Shown piece by piece: positions 714 to 49,620 of a DNA stretch of 57,230 bases. Made by a program: the position numbers and the translations under genes. How positions within the stretch are numbered: the first letter of the stretch is position 1; each line of letters opens with the position of its first letter. Source of the stretch: Spirogloea muscicola (taxonomy: Eukaryota; Streptophyta; Zygnematophyceae; Spirogloeales; Spirogloeaceae); contig WELB01000078.1 of the NCBI GenBank assembly GCA_009602725.1, forward strand, positions 447,680-504,909. The letters are read 5' to 3'. The notes under the pieces are model-generated. The model did not search any database and had not been told where the DNA came from. It saw only the letters and a list, made by a program, of their open reading frames with translations.

Positions 714-774
714 CAAACCCCTAAACCTGAACCCCTAAACGTTCACCCTAAACCCCTAAACCCTAAACCCTAAC
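714..774. repeat. CCCTAAA repeats (interstitial telomere-like or telo-box cluster)
   Basis: About eight imperfect CCCTAAA/CCCCTAAA units lie between the GC-rich block on the left and the ATG at 816. TTTAGGG is the plant-type telomere repeat, also used by many green algae. In plants AAACCCTA (telo-box) is a promoter element as well. Position directly upstream of a candidate gene fits the promoter reading; the degenerate tandem form fits an interstitial telomere relic. Confidence 0.6.
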
Positions 775-9867: not shown

Positions 9868-10020
9868 GCTTTTTAGGCCGCCTCCGTCATTTGGCCCCTT
9901 TTCTCAATTCTTTTCGGGCTGGCGGCTTTTCACGGCCCTTGCCCCCATTGGGAGTGCCACTTCCCTTTTACTCAAGAGAAGCAAAGCAGCTACGCAGCAC
10001 TCAGTAACCGCCTGCTAAGC
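9868..10020. mobile_element. Two abutting retroelement 3' fragments in opposite orientation
   Basis: 9868-9970 (plus) is a type A 3' UTR: TTTGGCCCC, TTCTTTTCGGGCTGGC, a CACGGCCC arm, then TTGCCCCCATTGGGAGTGCC and a pyrimidine-rich end. 9975-10020 (minus) matches the 3' coding end of the full element: its complement of CAGTAACC..CTGCTAAGC corresponds to 10216-10260. Both are 5'-truncated scraps. Confidence 0.6.
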
Positions 10021-10025
10021 ATCGG

Positions 10026-10097
10026 TCGGTCCATGGCCCACGCCTTGCATCTGCGTGCTGGCCGTGCTCTCGCTACGGCCTCCGGCTTTCGTCAGGG
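10026..10097 (+). mobile_element. Left half of an interrupted type A retroelement copy
   Basis: Reads SMAHALHLRAGRALATASGF on the plus strand and differs by about one base over 70 from the uninterrupted copy at 47542. Homology stops exactly at TCAGGG (10092-10097) and resumes at 14371, on the far side of the minus-strand element. This is therefore the left flank of the insertion site. Confidence 0.8.
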
Positions 10098-10230
10098 AGA
10101 AGGGCTCGCCCATTGAGGATAGGGGCTGGAAAAAGCCAGCCCAGAAAAGAATGAACAAAGGACGAGAAGGGGCCAGGGGAAGTACGAAGAACAACAAGCA
10201 CAGAAAAGAAACGAAGCAGCTACGATGCAC

Positions 10231-13200
10231 TCAGTAACCCCTGCTAAGCAGCCTCAGGTCAGAGAGACTGGGTTCCTGGAAGCGGGTCCCCTGGCCAGAG
10301 CCAGAGGCAGCAGCGAGGGCTCTGCCTGTACGCAGGTGCAGCGCGCGGGCCATAGACCTCTGCAGCGAGACGGCCAAGCGCATGCGGTACACCTGCGCTA
10401 GCGACCCTGCTGCATGGGAGTCCACCGGCTCCCCATGGAAGCGGCGGATAATGGCGTGACGTGAGAGCTGGTTGAGCAGCTCGAGCCACCGAGCGCCCAG
10501 CGCCCCGTGCGTATCGATGGCAAGCGGGAAGAACTCGTCTTCCCGCGGGTGATCTGCGTATTTTAGCTCCTTGGCCCGAGCGGCGCAGGTTACCGCATAC
10601 CCAGCCTTGGTGGCACACTGGGTTGAGTGTGAGCGGTCATAGGAGTCAGTGGTCACCACGTCCAGGAGAAGACGTGGCCCGCCTGCTGGTGGGGTGGCCA
10701 CAAGGTCCACGCGACGAGCGTGGAGACCGTCGGCACGTTGCTGGAGCGGCATGACGGCAGAGTTCTCTGCTGCCACCGAGAAGCCAGCCTCCACAAGGAT
10801 GCCATGCATCGCATCCCGGAGATGGTCGTGGGCCGCTGTCCGCTCTCCGCCATGGGAACAGCGCAGAACATGAGCGGCCAGCTCCCCAGGCTCGGCCCCT
10901 CGCTCGCCGCATTCACACTGTTGCACACCCTGGAGACATGGCGGCGGCAGGCCCAGGAGCCGGTGGACGGCACTGCGGAACACCTCGTCCGGGAGTGTGA
11001 GGGCTTCATTGAGGGGGAGGGCCTGGAGCCACGCTACGGCCCCCGGGGAGGAGGCCGAGTGGAATTGAATCTCGCGCGCCCGCGCAGGTCGGCCTCCGGG
11101 AGCTGGAGCAAGGAGGTGGTGAAGGCTGCCTTGTCCATTGCGGCTGCGAAGCGCGCTTGGACGCGCAGGTCGGCGGTGTGCGCGAGGTGCGCAAAGGAGA
11201 CCGCCTGGCCCGCCAGGTCCGGGTGCACCGCGAGCAGCTCCTGGTGGGCGGAGCGTAGCGACGCCTGGAAAGGCAGCACACCCGTGTCTACCTCCACCAC
11301 CGCCTGCTCCAGCGCACGCTGGCCGTGGACCAAGAAACGCTGGGCCAAGGAGGCGGCTGTCTGCGCCCAGCTGCCGAGGTACGCTGCCCGGCAGGAACGG
11401 ACGAGCAGCGCAAGCCGAGACCGCCGTATCTGAGGGGTAGCGTCGCCTGATAAAGAGCGGCAGGCGACTGGGGGAAGCCCTGGTGGCGGACCAGGGCCGC
11501 CAGGCTCGTCACCATGCCTGCGTCGAAACCCGCGTACGCCGCCAGCGCCCCTGGGGACGGCGGGGTGGCCCGCGTCAGATACTGGGGTCGCTGCGCAATG
11601 GCCTTGGTCAACATGGCCAGAGCCAGCTGCATATCCTGCAGCTCGGGGAGCCGGGCCGCAGGCTGGAGGTGCTCCTCGAGACGGGCTCGCAGCTGCCCCT
11701 CCACGAAGGACGGCGCGCCGATGGGGACCCCCAGGAGGGTGAAGCCGTTTGCGGGAGTCAGGCATCCGGGCGGCAGCGCCGGGGTGGATGGGAGGCCGCA
11801 GGGGGACCAAGCCGCGCACTTCGACGCCCGGGTGGACAGGCCGAGGGTGGCCAGCTGCCGCTCGAAGGTGACGAAGGCCGCCGCCACGTCTTCCGGAGGG
11901 CCGACCATGGTGGTGTCGTCAGCGAAGGTGGGCAGTAGGACCCCTGGATGTGCCGCCGCGGTAGCCTGCAGAGCCCGGTGGTGAGCGAGCGCAAAGAAGA
12001 AGTCGGCGAGGGGGTCGCCTTGCCGCGTGCCCGCTTGGGACTGCAGGACCTCCACTTGGTCACCCCCTGTCCTCCAGAGGAGGTCGCTGGGCTGACCGTA
12101 CCCCAAGCGGAAAAAGGGTACCAGGGAGGGGAAGGCGGCCCGGAGCTCCTCCGCGATGCAGGCGCGCTCCACGGTGTTGAACGATTTTTTACGTCGACGG
12201 CCAGTACCAGCCACCCCGGGTGTTGGTCCAAGGTTGCACGGACCCCGTGGACCACGGCCTCGCCCCCACTCCGCAGCCCCGTGCCATATTGATGTGGCGC
12301 CAGGTGCACCTGCGCCGGCCCCGCATGCTGCTGCCAGAAAACGCGGCTCACCAGGCGGTAGAGGACCTCCCCAATGGCAATGGGCCTGACTCCCCCGCTC
12401 GGCTTGTCGAGGGCGAGCAGCGTGCTGGTGCACAGTACGCCGCGGATGCTGGCCGGCACATTGTCCTGGGCCAGATGCTGGCAGATCTGCAGCAGCGCGT
12501 TGAAGTCCGCAGCCTCTCCCTCGAGGAAGATCTCCCGCAGGTGCTCAGTAAGCATGCGGGAGGGGCCACCGGCGGCTGCGCGATGGCTGGTCTGCAGAGC
12601 CTTCTTGAGGGCGTTGGCATCCAAGACCACCTCCTCTGGTGGTGCGAAGGCGGCCAACCACGGTGGCAGGGGGGAGCTCGCCGGGGGGTGCAGGGAGTCC
12701 AGGGCCGCCCGAGTCGCCAGATTGGTCGGCGCCAGCATCGCATCGTCGAGGGCCTGCACAGCCCTGGAAAGCTCACCCGCGTGGCCGAAGCGGAGTGCCC
12801 GGCGGACGCTGGCGGCCCTGTCGGGCACTGCCCCTGTGCCCCCACGGTTGGCCGCAGCGGCTGCCACGGCGGAGTCATGACGCGCCAGAAGCTCCTCCAG
12901 TGCCCGCTCTCGAACAACTGGACGCGCTCCAGCAGGGGCTGCTGGCCCTGCATGCGGCTGTCGGGAGAGGCACGCCCGAGCAGCAGCCGGGGGAAGAGGA
13001 GGAATAACTTCCACGCCGCCTCGTCCCGGTGGTCCGCGACGAGCCGCTGCGTCACCGAGCGGAGTGCGCGGCGGAGGTGCGGGCGCACCCAGCGCGGAAC
13101 GTGGCGGAGGAGCGGCAGGGCCGCCTGGCGGTGAACTGCGGCCAGGTCGAGGCTAGCCAGCCACTGCCAGAGTTGAGGTGTGGGCGGGGACGACGCGGGA

Positions 13201-14225
13201 GGCCTGCCTGGTCTGCCCCGACGACCACCCGCTGCCGCTGCGCTCCGCGCCTGTGCTGCGCGGTTGTTACTGCACGTACAGGCTCGCTCGTGGTTGGCCC
13301 GGCCGGACCGCGAGGTGAAGGTCCTCTGGCAGTGCTTGCACAGCAGTGGTTCGGGCGAGTGAGGCGGGGGCGACGGCGGTGAAGCCGGCTCGCTCGGCGG
13401 GGTTGGAGGCGGCGGTGGCGGGGGCGGAGTCGATGGCGCCGACTGCGGAAGGCTGGGCGGTTCGAGAGGCGGGATGGCGGATGGTTGGGAAGGCGGCGTC
13501 GGGGGAGATGGGGGCGGTGGGGCCGACGGCGGCAGTGGTGGCGATGGCTCGGCGGGCGGTGGCGGCTGCGGCACCTCTGTCGCCGGAGAAGCACATTCAG
13601 GGACGTCAGGGCCGAGCACATGGGGCATGGTACGCTGAGGATGGAGGAGCGTTGTCACCTCGTGGGTCCCCTCACATCTCAGGGGTGGAGGCGATAACGC
13701 AGGTGCCCGACTCTTCTCTCGGGCGGGAGGCGATAGAGTAATGGCCTCCGTGGTATGCTCCGTGGTATGCGCCGCCTGGGTAGATGCCAGGGCCGGGGCG
13801 ATGGAGCTACAAGCCGCGACGGCCGCTGCGGGCGGCGTGCCGGTGGGGCTGGCATGCCCCTTGCAGTGTTTCCGGTGCAAAGAGACACCGCGGCGAGTTG
13901 CGGAATCCCGCGGACAAGTTGGGCACAGTACGCGCGCGGGCTCCGCAGGCGGGGGTGACGGCGGCGGAAGAGGTGGGGGGGGCGCTGATGGGGGCGATGG
14001 CGAGGGGAGGGGGAAAGGCGGGGGGGGCTGCGGTGGAGGTGGCGTGGTGACGGCGTCGAGGGCGGCGCGGAGGAGGAGCCGCTGCGCCCAAGCGACCTTG
14101 GACGGGGGATACTCGGGACTGCGGCTCCGCGGGCGGCGCCGAGGGCGCGCGGGTGGGGCGGCGGGGAGCAGAGCGGCGCTGGCGACGGCGGCGAAGGCGG
14201 CTGGCCCGGTCGCCGCGGACCCCAT
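10231..14225 (-). pseudogene. Frame-broken retrotransposon polyprotein: zinc fingers, RT, CCHC, nuclease-like
   Basis: N-terminus: Pro-rich linkers with two fingers, one CPTC..HRKH type (near 13900-13940) and one CKHC..HERAC type (near 13270-13345). RT follows: LLALDKPSGGVRPIAIGEV, HQYGTGLRSGGEAVVHG, QAGTRQGDPL, and the catalytic box FADD (about 11910). Thumb: PLRYGGLGLR. C-terminus: CECGERG...HVLRC (CCHC), then a restriction-like core (VDLVA ... LLLDVVTTD ... AKELKY) and the family terminal peptide SLSDLRLLSRGY. At least four frame changes interrupt it: near 12915, near 12186 (an A6 run just after VAVDVK), near 11395 and near 11045. A 4-N gap lies near the N-terminus. It cannot make a full protein as read, although single-base assembly errors could account for some breaks. 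Confidence 0.8.
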
Positions 14226-14235
14226 GGCGGGCGCC

Positions 14236-14239
14236 NNNN
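14236..14239. other. Assembly gap (NNNN)
   Basis: Four Ns lie between two nearly identical segments of about 40 bp (GGCTGGCCCGGTC.CCGCGG ... ATGGCGGGCGCC on each side), within the 5' part of the retroelement ORF. This looks like an unmerged overlap or a collapsed repeat rather than missing unique sequence. Confidence 0.7.
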
Positions 14240-14370
14240 GACGGCGGCTGGCCCGGTCACCGCGGACCCCATGGCGGGCGCCGCCGGCGGCGACGCCGGC
14301 GGCAGCCCGGGGTTTTGGAGGGGTGGCGGCGGCGGCGGCGGCGACGCTCGCGTAACGACTCAATGAATTG

Positions 14371-14583
14371 TCAGGGGGATAGTTTCCCGGCAGCTAGCCT
14401 GTCGGATGTGAGGCTACTCACTCGTAACTACCGAGTGGTCCATCCTCCCCCGTTCTGCTGTAGCCTCTTCAGGTCCCGCAGTCGCTGCTAGGCTCGTAGT
14501 CTGGCCCCTTCGAACCTTGTCAGTTATTTTCGGGCTGGCTTCTCACAGCCCTTGCCTCCATTGGAAGAGCCACTTCTTCTTCT
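14371..14583 (+). mobile_element. Right half of the interrupted type A retroelement copy
   Basis: Begins with the second TCAGGG, continues GGATAGTTTCCCGGCAGC and encodes AASLSDVRLLTRNY. It then runs through the type A 3' UTR, with hairpin arms GGGCTG (14532-14537) and CAGCCC (14546-14551), to GAGCCACTTCTTCTTCTT. It ends in a short TTC-type tandem tail rather than poly(A). Confidence 0.8.
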
Positions 14584-14585
14584 TG

Positions 14586-14667
14586 CTAAGCAGCCTCAGG
14601 TCAGAGAAGCTGGGCTCCGGGAAGCGGGTCCCCTGGCCAGAGCCAGAGGCGGCAGCGAGGGCTAGGC
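14586..14667 (-). mobile_element. Truncated 3' coding fragment of the family
   Basis: Close match to 10253-10320 (the end of the nuclease/C-terminal coding region, complement of GCTAAGCAGCCTCAGGTCAG). It abuts the TTC tail of the previous copy and has neither a 5' part nor its own 3' UTR, so it is a rearranged scrap. Confidence 0.6.
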
Positions 14668-22359: not shown

Positions 22360-25351
<2,992 letters not shown>

Positions 25352-45879: not shown

Positions 45880-46840
45880 TCGTGGAACTTAAGCCCTCCT
45901 CCAGCGCCGGGCTTTCCGCCCTGTATCCTCGGCCCCTCGTTATCTGACTCTCCGGTGACTGAAATCCCATTCTGCAGTTCCTTTTGCCTTTCACATGAGC
46001 AGTGTATTGGCTCTGCTTGGCATTCTTTCACTCTATGTACACCGCGCGCCTCCTCTTCTGAATTCATTCTCTTTTCTGGGCTGGCATCTCACAGCCACCG
46101 CCCTCTCCTGGAAGCGTCTGTTTTCTTTCTTCTGGGTCTCCCTCTGTCCAGGGTACTGAGCTTCCATCTGCATCATCTTGTCATCTTGTGTCTACTTGTG
46201 TAGTTTTTCCTTTTCGGCACCTTTTTGTTTTGTGGCCTCTGGATATTGTTTTTTTTTGGGGCTGGCTTTGCTAGCCCCTCGTTTACTATGGGCAAGCAAC
46301 TTTTCTGTCCATCCCTGGGCTGGCCTTTCGCAGGCACCGCCTCTTTCTTTCCTTTCTACCTGGACCAAATATTGGCTTCATCCGTATCCTGCTTTTTGAG
46401 CCATCCGGCCCTTTCATAGACCTTGTCCATTCCCATGGCTGGCATCTCCCCGCAGCGAGCTACTCCGACCTGATGTTGCTCACTCGCTGGTACTGAGCTT
46501 CCCTCTGCATCGTCTTGTGTTTTGTAGTGTTTTGTGGTTAGTCCTTTTTCGGCACCTCTTTCTTTGGCTCTGGACATTGTCCATTCTTTTTGGGTTGGCT
46601 TTGCCAGCCCCTCTTCTCTGGCTTTTCACAGCCCTTGCCCCCATTGGGAGAGCCACTTCTTCTCCATGGGCGAGCACTTTCTTCTCACAGCCACTGCTGT
46701 CAATTTGGAAGAGCTGTTTTCTTTCCGTGGCCTCCCTTTCAATTCACGCACAATGCGCCCCCTTCCTCTCATTTGGTAGGAGCTTTCGGGGCAGGCTGCT
46801 TACTGCTCACTGCTTGGTACCCGCTACTTGAATTCCTTGA
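45880..46840 (+). mobile_element. Stack of type B retroelement 3' UTR modules
   Basis: At least four diverged modules in the same orientation. Hairpin-type cores lie near 46080 (GGGCTGGCATCTCACAGCC), 46258 (GGGGCTGGCTTTGCTAGCCCC), 46317 (GGGCTGGCCTTTCGCAGGC) and 46590 (GGTTGGCTTTGCCAGCCC). 46445-46500 includes a coding end (SYSDLMLLTRWY) followed by TGAGCTTCCCTCTGCATCGT, almost as at 57080-57125. The modules carry TCTTTGGCTCTGGACATTGTCC, reading TCTGGACATTGTCC at the core. Confidence 0.65.
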
Positions 46841-47269: not shown

Positions 47270-48350
47270 TTCCTCCCTGGGGCCCGCACGAGGCCGCCCT
47301 GGGGCCCGTCCCAAGGCCCCACCTCGAGAGGCGCCCCCCTCCAGGGGCCCGCACGAGGTCGCCCTGGGGCCCGCCCCGAGGCCCACTTCGAGGGGCGGGC
47401 CCGCACGAGGCCCACGCCGAGGGGCAGACCTCTCGAGGGGAAGGCCCAACTCGAAGGACGGGCCGTACGAAGCCCACCCCAAGCTGCGGACCGGTCGGAA
47501 GGCCTATTTAGATCGTATGCGCTTGTCCGTCTCCCTCCAGCGGTCCATGGCCCACGCCTTGCATCTGCGTGCTGGCCGTGCTCTCGCTGCGGCCTCCGGC
47601 TTTCGTCAGGGGGATAGTTTACCGGCAGCTAGTCTGTCGGATGTGAGGCTCCTCACTCGTAACTACTAAGTGGTCCATCCTCCCCCGTTCTGCCGTAGCC
47701 TCTTCAGGCCCCGCAGTCGCTGCTTAGCTCGTACTTTGGCCCCTTCGAACCTTGTCAATTCATTTCGGGCTGGCTTCTCACAGCCCTTGCCCCCATTGGG
47801 AGAGCCACTTCTTCTTCTATTTAGAGCTAAGTACTGAGTGGTCCATCCTCCCCCCTTCTGCCATAGCCTCTTCAGGCCCCACAGTCGCTGCTTAGCTCGT
47901 AGTTTGGCCCCTTCCTGTCAATTCTTTTCGGGCTGGCTTCTCACAGCCCTTGCCCCCATCGGGAGAGCCACTTCTTTCTCTCTATTTAGAGGGGGCCGAC
48001 CGATCGGAACCGAGTGGCCGACCTTTCGGAAATCGTTTACCGGCAGCTAGTCTGTCGGATGTGAGGCTCCTCACTCGTAACTACTAAGTGGTCCATCCTC
48101 CCCCGTTCTGCCATAGCCTCTTCAGGCCCCGCAGTCGCTGCTTAGCTCGTACTTTGGCCCCTTCGAACCTTGTCAATTCTTTTCGGGCTGGCTTCTCACA
48201 GCCCTTGCCCTCATTGGGAGAGCCACTTCTTCTTTCGGAAAGGCCCACCTCGAGGGGCCGACCGATCGGAAGGCCCACGCCGAGGGCCCGACCGATACGA
48301 GGCGCCAGAGTAGACACCGCGCCACCGAGGGCCCACCGTGCGGGACCACC
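47270..48350 (+). repeat. GC-rich tandem repeats interleaved with three retroelement 3' modules
   Basis: 47270-47515 and 48236-48350 are imperfect repeats of a unit of about 30-35 bp (variants of GGCCCACNTCGAGGGGC and GGCCGACCGATCGGAAGG), also present briefly at 47993-48030. Between them lie three type A modules: 47542-47820 (coding end SMAHALHLRAGRALAAASGF to stop at 47667-47669, then 3' UTR), 47827-47990 (UTR only) and 48035-48236 (coding end AASLSDVRLLTRNY and UTR). Modules 1 and 2 are followed by CTATTTAGAG; a similar CTATTTAGA precedes module 1 near 47503. Confidence 0.7.
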
Positions 48351-49259: not shown

Positions 49260-49620
49260 GCTTCGGCTATTCTGCGCGCCTTCCAGCCCTTCAGACGTTC
49301 TTCATCTCTTTGGGCTGGCCTCTCACTGCCATTGCCTTACATGTATGAGCTGTTTCTACTTTCCGCATGAATGTAGGCTCAGTCGGCATGGGTGCCCCCG
49401 ATTGGAAAGAAGAAATAGTTCTTACAACGTAAGGCAGTGGCTGTTAGAGGCCAGCCCAAAGAGACACTTGTTTCAACGTACGGCAGTGACTTTGAGAGAG
49501 CAGCCCAAAGAAACAGCTCTCCCAATGCAAGGCAGCGGCTGTGAGAGGCCGCCCAAAGAAAGTGCTCGCCCATAGAGAAGAGGGGCTGGCAAAGCAAGCC
49601 CAAGGGAATGTCCAAGGTCG
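49260..49620. repeat. Mixed retroelement tail motifs
   Basis: Plus-strand TTTGGGCTGGCCTCTCACTGCC near 49310 and several minus-orientation repeats of GGCTGTTAGAGGCCAGCCC / GGCAGCGGCTGTGAGAGGCC between 49430 and 49560, then GAGAAGAGGGGCTGGCAAAG. These are fragments of the family 3' UTR in tandem. Confidence 0.5.

What the first reader, a model, noticed from the sequence alone, without database searches (positions are those of the whole stretch)
10092..14376. R2/CRE-like retrotransposon inserted into its own relative, with a 6-bp target duplication
A minus-strand element of about 4.27 kb separates two halves of an older plus-strand copy of the same family. TCAGGG is present at both junctions, and the uninterrupted sequence exists at 47542-47830. 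This fixes both ends of the element and gives its architecture: two N-terminal Cys/His fingers, RT with an FADD box, CCHC, then a restriction-like core. R2/CRE-group elements are often target-specific, so insertion into a relative's 3' coding end raises the idea that the family's own tail is a target.
Basis: partly seen in the sequence, partly recalled or inferred. Interest (0 to 1): 0.75.

Follow-up and report, generated by a model that had tools for sequence, protein, structure and literature searches.

The report
Nested R2-like retrotransposons, no fixed target
A copy-and-paste DNA parasite has landed inside a cousin that had itself landed inside another cousin; the nest is real, but the parasites appear to land at scattered sites in repeat-rich islands rather than at a fixed site in their own tails.

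Summary
The nested insertion is real. A 4,272-bp minus-strand element (10098-14369, "W") splits a 5'-truncated plus-strand copy of a related family ("T"). The duplication is 7 bp (GTCAGGG), not 6. T has its own 8-bp duplication and sits in an antisense W/Y-type 3' end, so there are three layers. W has R2-type order: two Cys/His fingers, RT with FADD, zinc knuckle, PD...KX2KY endonuclease. Its frame is broken at least four times, but intact relatives exist.

The self-target idea fails as site specificity. The site is uninterrupted 877 times and holds a W-type end in this orientation once, here. No common flank runs through 93 three-prime junctions. New copies do lie near relatives: one is within 300 bp of 71/93 junctions against 10/142 random pieces. 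But two unrelated LTR families do much the same (11/19; p=0.15). Best reading: target-primed insertion without a fixed site, accumulating in repeat-rich islands crowded with truncated relatives. A weak self-preference is not excluded. A new member of a known kind; nested LINE arrays in algae (Zepp) are already known.

The parts
10098..14369 (-). W element: full copy of an RLE-type non-LTR retrotransposon, 4,272 bp, frame broken
   Evidence: boundaries from host realignment; 3' end as in the 39 other fetched copies
10091..10097 (.). target-site duplication GTCAGGG, left copy
14370..14376 (.). target-site duplication GTCAGGG, right copy
10022..10097 (+). left half of the host T copy (C-terminal coding end)
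   Evidence: 97% to the T copy at 47542 over 10028-10100
14377..14584 (+). right half of the host T copy (end of coding, 3' UTR, hairpin tail)
   Evidence: 92% to the T copy at 47542 over 14370-14581
10014..10021 (.). 8-bp duplication GCTAAGCA flanking the T copy, left
14585..14592 (.). 8-bp duplication GCTAAGCA flanking the T copy, right
9974..10021 (-). outer layer: piece of a W/Y-type 3' UTR and stop region, left part
   Evidence: 87.5% to W
14585..14663 (-). outer layer: W/Y-type C-terminal coding end, right part
   Evidence: 93.75% to W over 14584-14663
13863..13925 (-). first N-terminal Cys/His finger, CX2CX12HX4C
13278..13340 (-). second N-terminal Cys/His finger, CX2CX12HX4C
11369..12244 (-). 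part of the reverse transcriptase; FADD box at 11915-11926
   Evidence: RVT_1 E 1.6e-06, 28.4 bits, just under the curated cut-off of 29.6; intact sister 7.7e-16, 58.9 bits
10858..10917 (-). zinc-knuckle-like motif CECGERGAEPGELAAHVLRC, spacing CX1CX12HX3C
10558..10713 (-). restriction-like endonuclease core: RVDLVA...LLLDVVTTD (10645-10713) and KELKY = KX2KY (10558-10572)
   Evidence: KX2KY rule from passages of PMC5678591
10098..10158 (-). 3' tail with hairpin (GGGCTGG-CCAGCCC, 10123-10142), of a type found in each family read
47542..47816 (+). uninterrupted T copy, same site unfilled

Best explanation
The region is a three-layer nest of non-LTR retrotransposons that carry a restriction-like endonuclease. 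Each layer most likely arose by target-primed reverse transcription: the enzyme nicks DNA, copies its RNA from the 3' tail, often stops early, and leaves a short duplication (7 and 8 bp here). Shown: the layers, the ends, two target-site duplications, the domain order, intact relatives, a tail type shared among families, and the lack of a common insertion site in the junctions read. Inferred: that the hairpin tail is what the enzyme recognises, and that nesting is common because new copies accumulate in repeat-rich islands full of truncated 3' ends, where LTR elements also land.
For: Nest and duplications. Precise 3' end. Intact sister ORF of 1,331 codons and at least 17 protein matches at 99-100% identity over 943-945 aa, the query's own place included. 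R2 is the closest solved protein, E 6.4e-07. KX2KY present. The target site is unfilled 877 times and filled once. Base composition of W 3' flanks is near even from about the sixth base on. Relative within 300 bp: 71/93 junctions, 11/19 LTR junctions, 10/142 random pieces. 5' truncation: 193 first-look candidates for the 5' query (770 bases) against 4,435 for the 3' query (503 bases) (rough counts).
Against: RLE junctions are closer to relatives than LTR junctions on all three measures (OR 2.3-2.9), though not significantly (p 0.12-0.15, LTR n=19). An earlier run gave p=0.024 on one measure, with a library that held pieces of some S flanks. A few sites recur: five places where a T- or W-type end abuts the same S-type UTR site, two of them already in the junction set; three W copies at or beside the stop codon of different relatives, one placed by eye; L013 and C33 at nearly the same antisense site. 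Junctions lying in relatives are more often sense than antisense (28:12, two of the 28 being self-matches), and tails within 150 bp likewise (32:13); both counts favour sense by construction, which I could not remove.
Confidence: 0.82

Rival explanations
1. Self-targeting: the RNP is drawn to the 3' ends of its own clade, for example because tail RNA or DNA is recognised or because the nicked strand pairs with the element's pyrimidine-rich RNA end. Nesting is then the mode of integration.
For: Relatives cover 41% of the first 300 bp of flank against 3.7% of random DNA. An exact T-tail word is 17.6 times denser in the flanks (7 in 34.2 kb) than the raw genome average (1,785 in 153.1 Mb), about 13 times if 28% of the assembly is N as in the random pieces. 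Recurrent sites in an S-type UTR.
Against: LTR controls show relatives in 31.5% of flank and one exact T-tail word in 7.6 kb. No significant peak of tails at the junction: thirds 25, 21, 19, p=0.23. 877 unfilled sites against 1 filled.
Confidence: 0.12
2. Strict site specificity for the CGTCAGGGGGAT site in relatives.
For: One insertion at the site in the window.
Against: no other W 3' junction in the site.
Confidence: 0.01
3. Assembly artefact joining unrelated repeats.
For: The assembly has many N runs (16,684 of 60,000 bases in 20 random pieces). Some Y copies share a 5' flank but have different 3' flanks (C338 with C20; C453 with C66).
Against: Both joins keep the host in register and leave a short duplication; the 3' end is the family's true end; the outer layer also closes cleanly.
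Confidence: 0.03

Closest known systems
R2 non-LTR retrotransposons
   Same: Finger - RT - zinc knuckle - restriction-like endonuclease order in one ORF; best solved-structure match (9nl3, E 6.4e-07); KX2KY as described in PMC5678591 (passages)
   Different: No fixed target site; two fingers far apart with proline-rich sequence between; knuckle spacing CX1CX12HX3C instead of CX2-3CX7-8HX4C (rule); no Myb motif seen by eye, nor a Myb family in Pfam at E 0.05
HERO clade of RLE elements
   Same: PMC4640811 (passages) says HERO holds many non-specific elements, which fits the lack of a fixed site
   Different: Membership untested; no HERO sequence was available
Zepp / ZeppL LINEs of green algae
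   Different: Zepp and ZeppL are L1-clade by that paper's tree. The present elements carry an RLE, and copies are listed on many contigs
MoTeR telomeric elements
   Same: Putative restriction-enzyme-like endonuclease and multi-copy arrays (PMC7367193, passages)
   Different: MoTeRs sit in telomere repeats; the junctions read here show no such common target

Membership tests
RLE-type non-LTR retrotransposon | Reverse transcriptase of the RVT_1 family in a long single ORF | tested here: met
   RVT_1 E 7.7e-16 in the intact sister; 1,331-codon ORF
RLE-type non-LTR retrotransposon | Endonuclease core with catalytic K in KX2KY (second K less conserved) | tested here: met
   RVDLVA...LLLDVVTTD...KELKY; L091 has KLQHY; KX2KY from PMC5678591 (passages). 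By motif only: the profile found no PDB match up to E 5 and the fold model was poor, mean pLDDT 47.8
RLE-type non-LTR retrotransposon | CCHC zinc knuckle with spacing CX2-3CX7-8HX4C | tested here: not met
   A CCHC-like motif is at the right place but its spacing is CX1CX12HX3C; spacing rule. So the claim is an RLE-type element with a divergent knuckle
RLE-type non-LTR retrotransposon | Precise 3' end, variable 5' end or truncation, short target-site duplication | tested here: met
   three of eight Y copies show a 7-8 bp repeat longer than every null pairing, five do not
R2 clade | Insertion in the 28S rRNA gene (recalled) | tested here: not met
   The 3' flanks read share no common sequence; Rfam finds no RNA family in the window. 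Flanks were not compared with a 28S sequence
R2 clade | RT phylogeny places it with R2 | not testable with these tools
   No NeSL, CRE, R4, HERO or Dualen sequences on hand; only PDB proteins could be compared
Dualen | Both an APE and an RLE domain | tested here: not met
   Pfam finds only RVT_1 at E 0.05 in 1,278 of 1,331 residues; it also misses the RLE, so this is a weak test
Target-specific RLE elements (CRE, R4, NeSL) | A common target sequence at insertions | tested here: not met
   93 junctions; 877 unfilled and 1 filled

The most novel reading that the evidence does not exclude
A whole clade of RLE retrotransposons has replaced a host-gene target by its own dispersed 3' ends. The pyrimidine-rich 3' ends left by earlier insertions serve as preferred primer sites for later ones, so the clade builds its own landing islands, and LTR elements merely follow.
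Probability: 0.1. Interest if true: 0.7.

Novelty: new member of a known kind. Interest (0 to 1): 0.3.

Why it matters
Most RLE elements are target-specific in print (PMC4640811, passages). Here a group with open frames and near-identical copies shows no fixed target in the junctions read. That gives material to ask how target choice is lost, and the shared hairpin tail gives a test of how families share an enzyme. The nest itself is ordinary.

Tried and rejected
Site-specific target: rejected by counts. Fine-scale tail preference: tail midpoints fall 25, 21, 19 in successive thirds of the first ~290 bp (65 tails, 92 flanks, p=0.23); W alone 15, 12, 8, p=0.15. Local hot spot in S-type UTRs: five exact genome matches. 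An early coverage table used no low-complexity filter, and one search used library pieces that held parts of some S flanks; both are replaced. Covariation of the tail hairpin: nearly invariant, so no support either way. Single-sequence folds give a closing stem around the hairpin in some tails and a second hairpin in others. Profile search of the C-terminus against PDB: no match. AlphaFold2 of the window's own C-terminus: mean pLDDT 47.8, so no fold search was made; its helix-strand order is only a hint. Viral contigs: 4 stretches matched a pattern, none a relative by tblastn. No Rfam match in the window at gathering cut-offs. Organism not identified. Papers: the listings showed no description of this family; most subscription papers are not held.

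Rows dropped. W: 39 fetched, 38 used (L016 runs into N); the window's own junction was not counted. T: 30 of 39 listed copies fetched, 29 used (L148 is an array). Y: 25 copies, 14 used; four have an all-N 3' piece, five and two had no clean 3' end. S: 14 fetched, 12 used (one without a recognised end, one N). LTR: 20 fetched plus 2 from earlier loci, 19 used (two N, one internal); the upstream flanks of those 2 were also left out, being the same insertions. The copies come from searches that score only the best 40 to 48 candidates, so they lean to young or close copies. Random pieces come from 20 stretches on contigs already known from hits, so they are not fully independent.

Full report
Observation. 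The window (C78:447680-504909 of a 153-Mb, 471-contig assembly) holds a 4,272-bp minus-strand element at 10098-14369. The two pieces beside it, joined, realign to the uninterrupted copy near 47542 with only the junction repeat as an indel. The repeat is GTCAGGG, so the duplication is 7 bp. The host piece is a 5'-truncated copy of a different but related family, here called T. T is itself bounded by an 8-bp GCTAAGCA, and its outer flanks rejoin to an antisense W/Y-type 3' end (119 bp, 91%). So three related elements are nested.

What the element is. Translation shows two Cys/His fingers, an RT with FADD, a CCHC-like knuckle and an endonuclease core with KX2KY. The frame changes at least four times in this copy. 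A sister family Y, 86% identical in DNA over 4,128 columns, has an intact 1,331-codon ORF, and at least 17 places encode it at 99-100% identity over 943-945 residues, the query's own place included. An open stretch of the W family itself lies at C321 (98% in the last 503 bases, 96% over 2,008 bases). The Y ORF matches RVT_1 (7.7e-16) and R2 proteins in the PDB (6.4e-07). Its knuckle spacing differs from the rule given in PMC5678591 (passages). The clade cannot be named without a tree.

Tail. Each family read ends in about 60 bases with a near-invariant hairpin and a pyrimidine-rich end, in T and Y with TTC repeats. [quoted passage not shown] That the hairpin is the recognition element is inference.

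Target. I read 93 three-prime junctions from four groups: W 38, T 29, Y 14, S 12 (S pools several families). No common flanking sequence runs through them. The T site has 877 uninterrupted matches within one mismatch and one filled by an exactly matching W-type end in this orientation. Of eight Y copies with both ends read, three show repeats of 7-8 bp longer than any null pairing and five do not.

Why nests. With a trimmed library, a relative lies within 300 bp of 71/93 junctions, 11/19 junctions of two LTR families, and 10/142 random pieces. RLE against LTR: p=0.15; LTR against random: p=4.8e-07. A relative within 30 bp: 40/93, 4/19, 5/142; a tail within 150 bp: 39/93, 4/19, 3/142. So the islands attract or retain insertions in general. 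All three measures lean towards the RLE elements (OR 2.3-2.9) without significance. Tails show no significant rise at the junction. A few sites recur. Nested insertion of LINEs into their own kind is known for Zepp (PMC8226300, passages).

Verdict. Real, well-bounded, and mostly ordinary: an RLE-type group of families with intact, near-identical copies and no fixed target in the junctions read. The self-target idea survives only as a weak preference that this control is too small to test.

Noticed in passing
window 46456-46663: An S-type 3' end runs into a T-type tail at the shared hairpin, as if the two tails had recombined or the enzyme had switched templates there.
   Followed up: partly
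L148 (C245:138500-139330): Near-identical T-tail units in tandem, period about 112-114 bp, joined at CTTCTTC.
   Followed up: partly
L052, L062, L064 and L053, L066: Y copies sharing a 5' flank, of which some pairs have different 3' flanks (C453/C66, C338/C20): either chimeric assembly or a carried-along 5' piece.
   Followed up: no
window 49410-49572: Tandem array of about 49 bp whose unit holds an antisense tail hairpin.
   Followed up: no
window 719-773: Degenerate CCCTAAA repeats, 7.9 copies.
   Followed up: no
window 22401-22476: A run of 76 A in a window of 55% G+C.
   Followed up: no
G000:C10:1028555-1031389: A T-type copy lies in an open frame of 2,854 codons, about twice that of most other full-length matches.
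   Followed up: no
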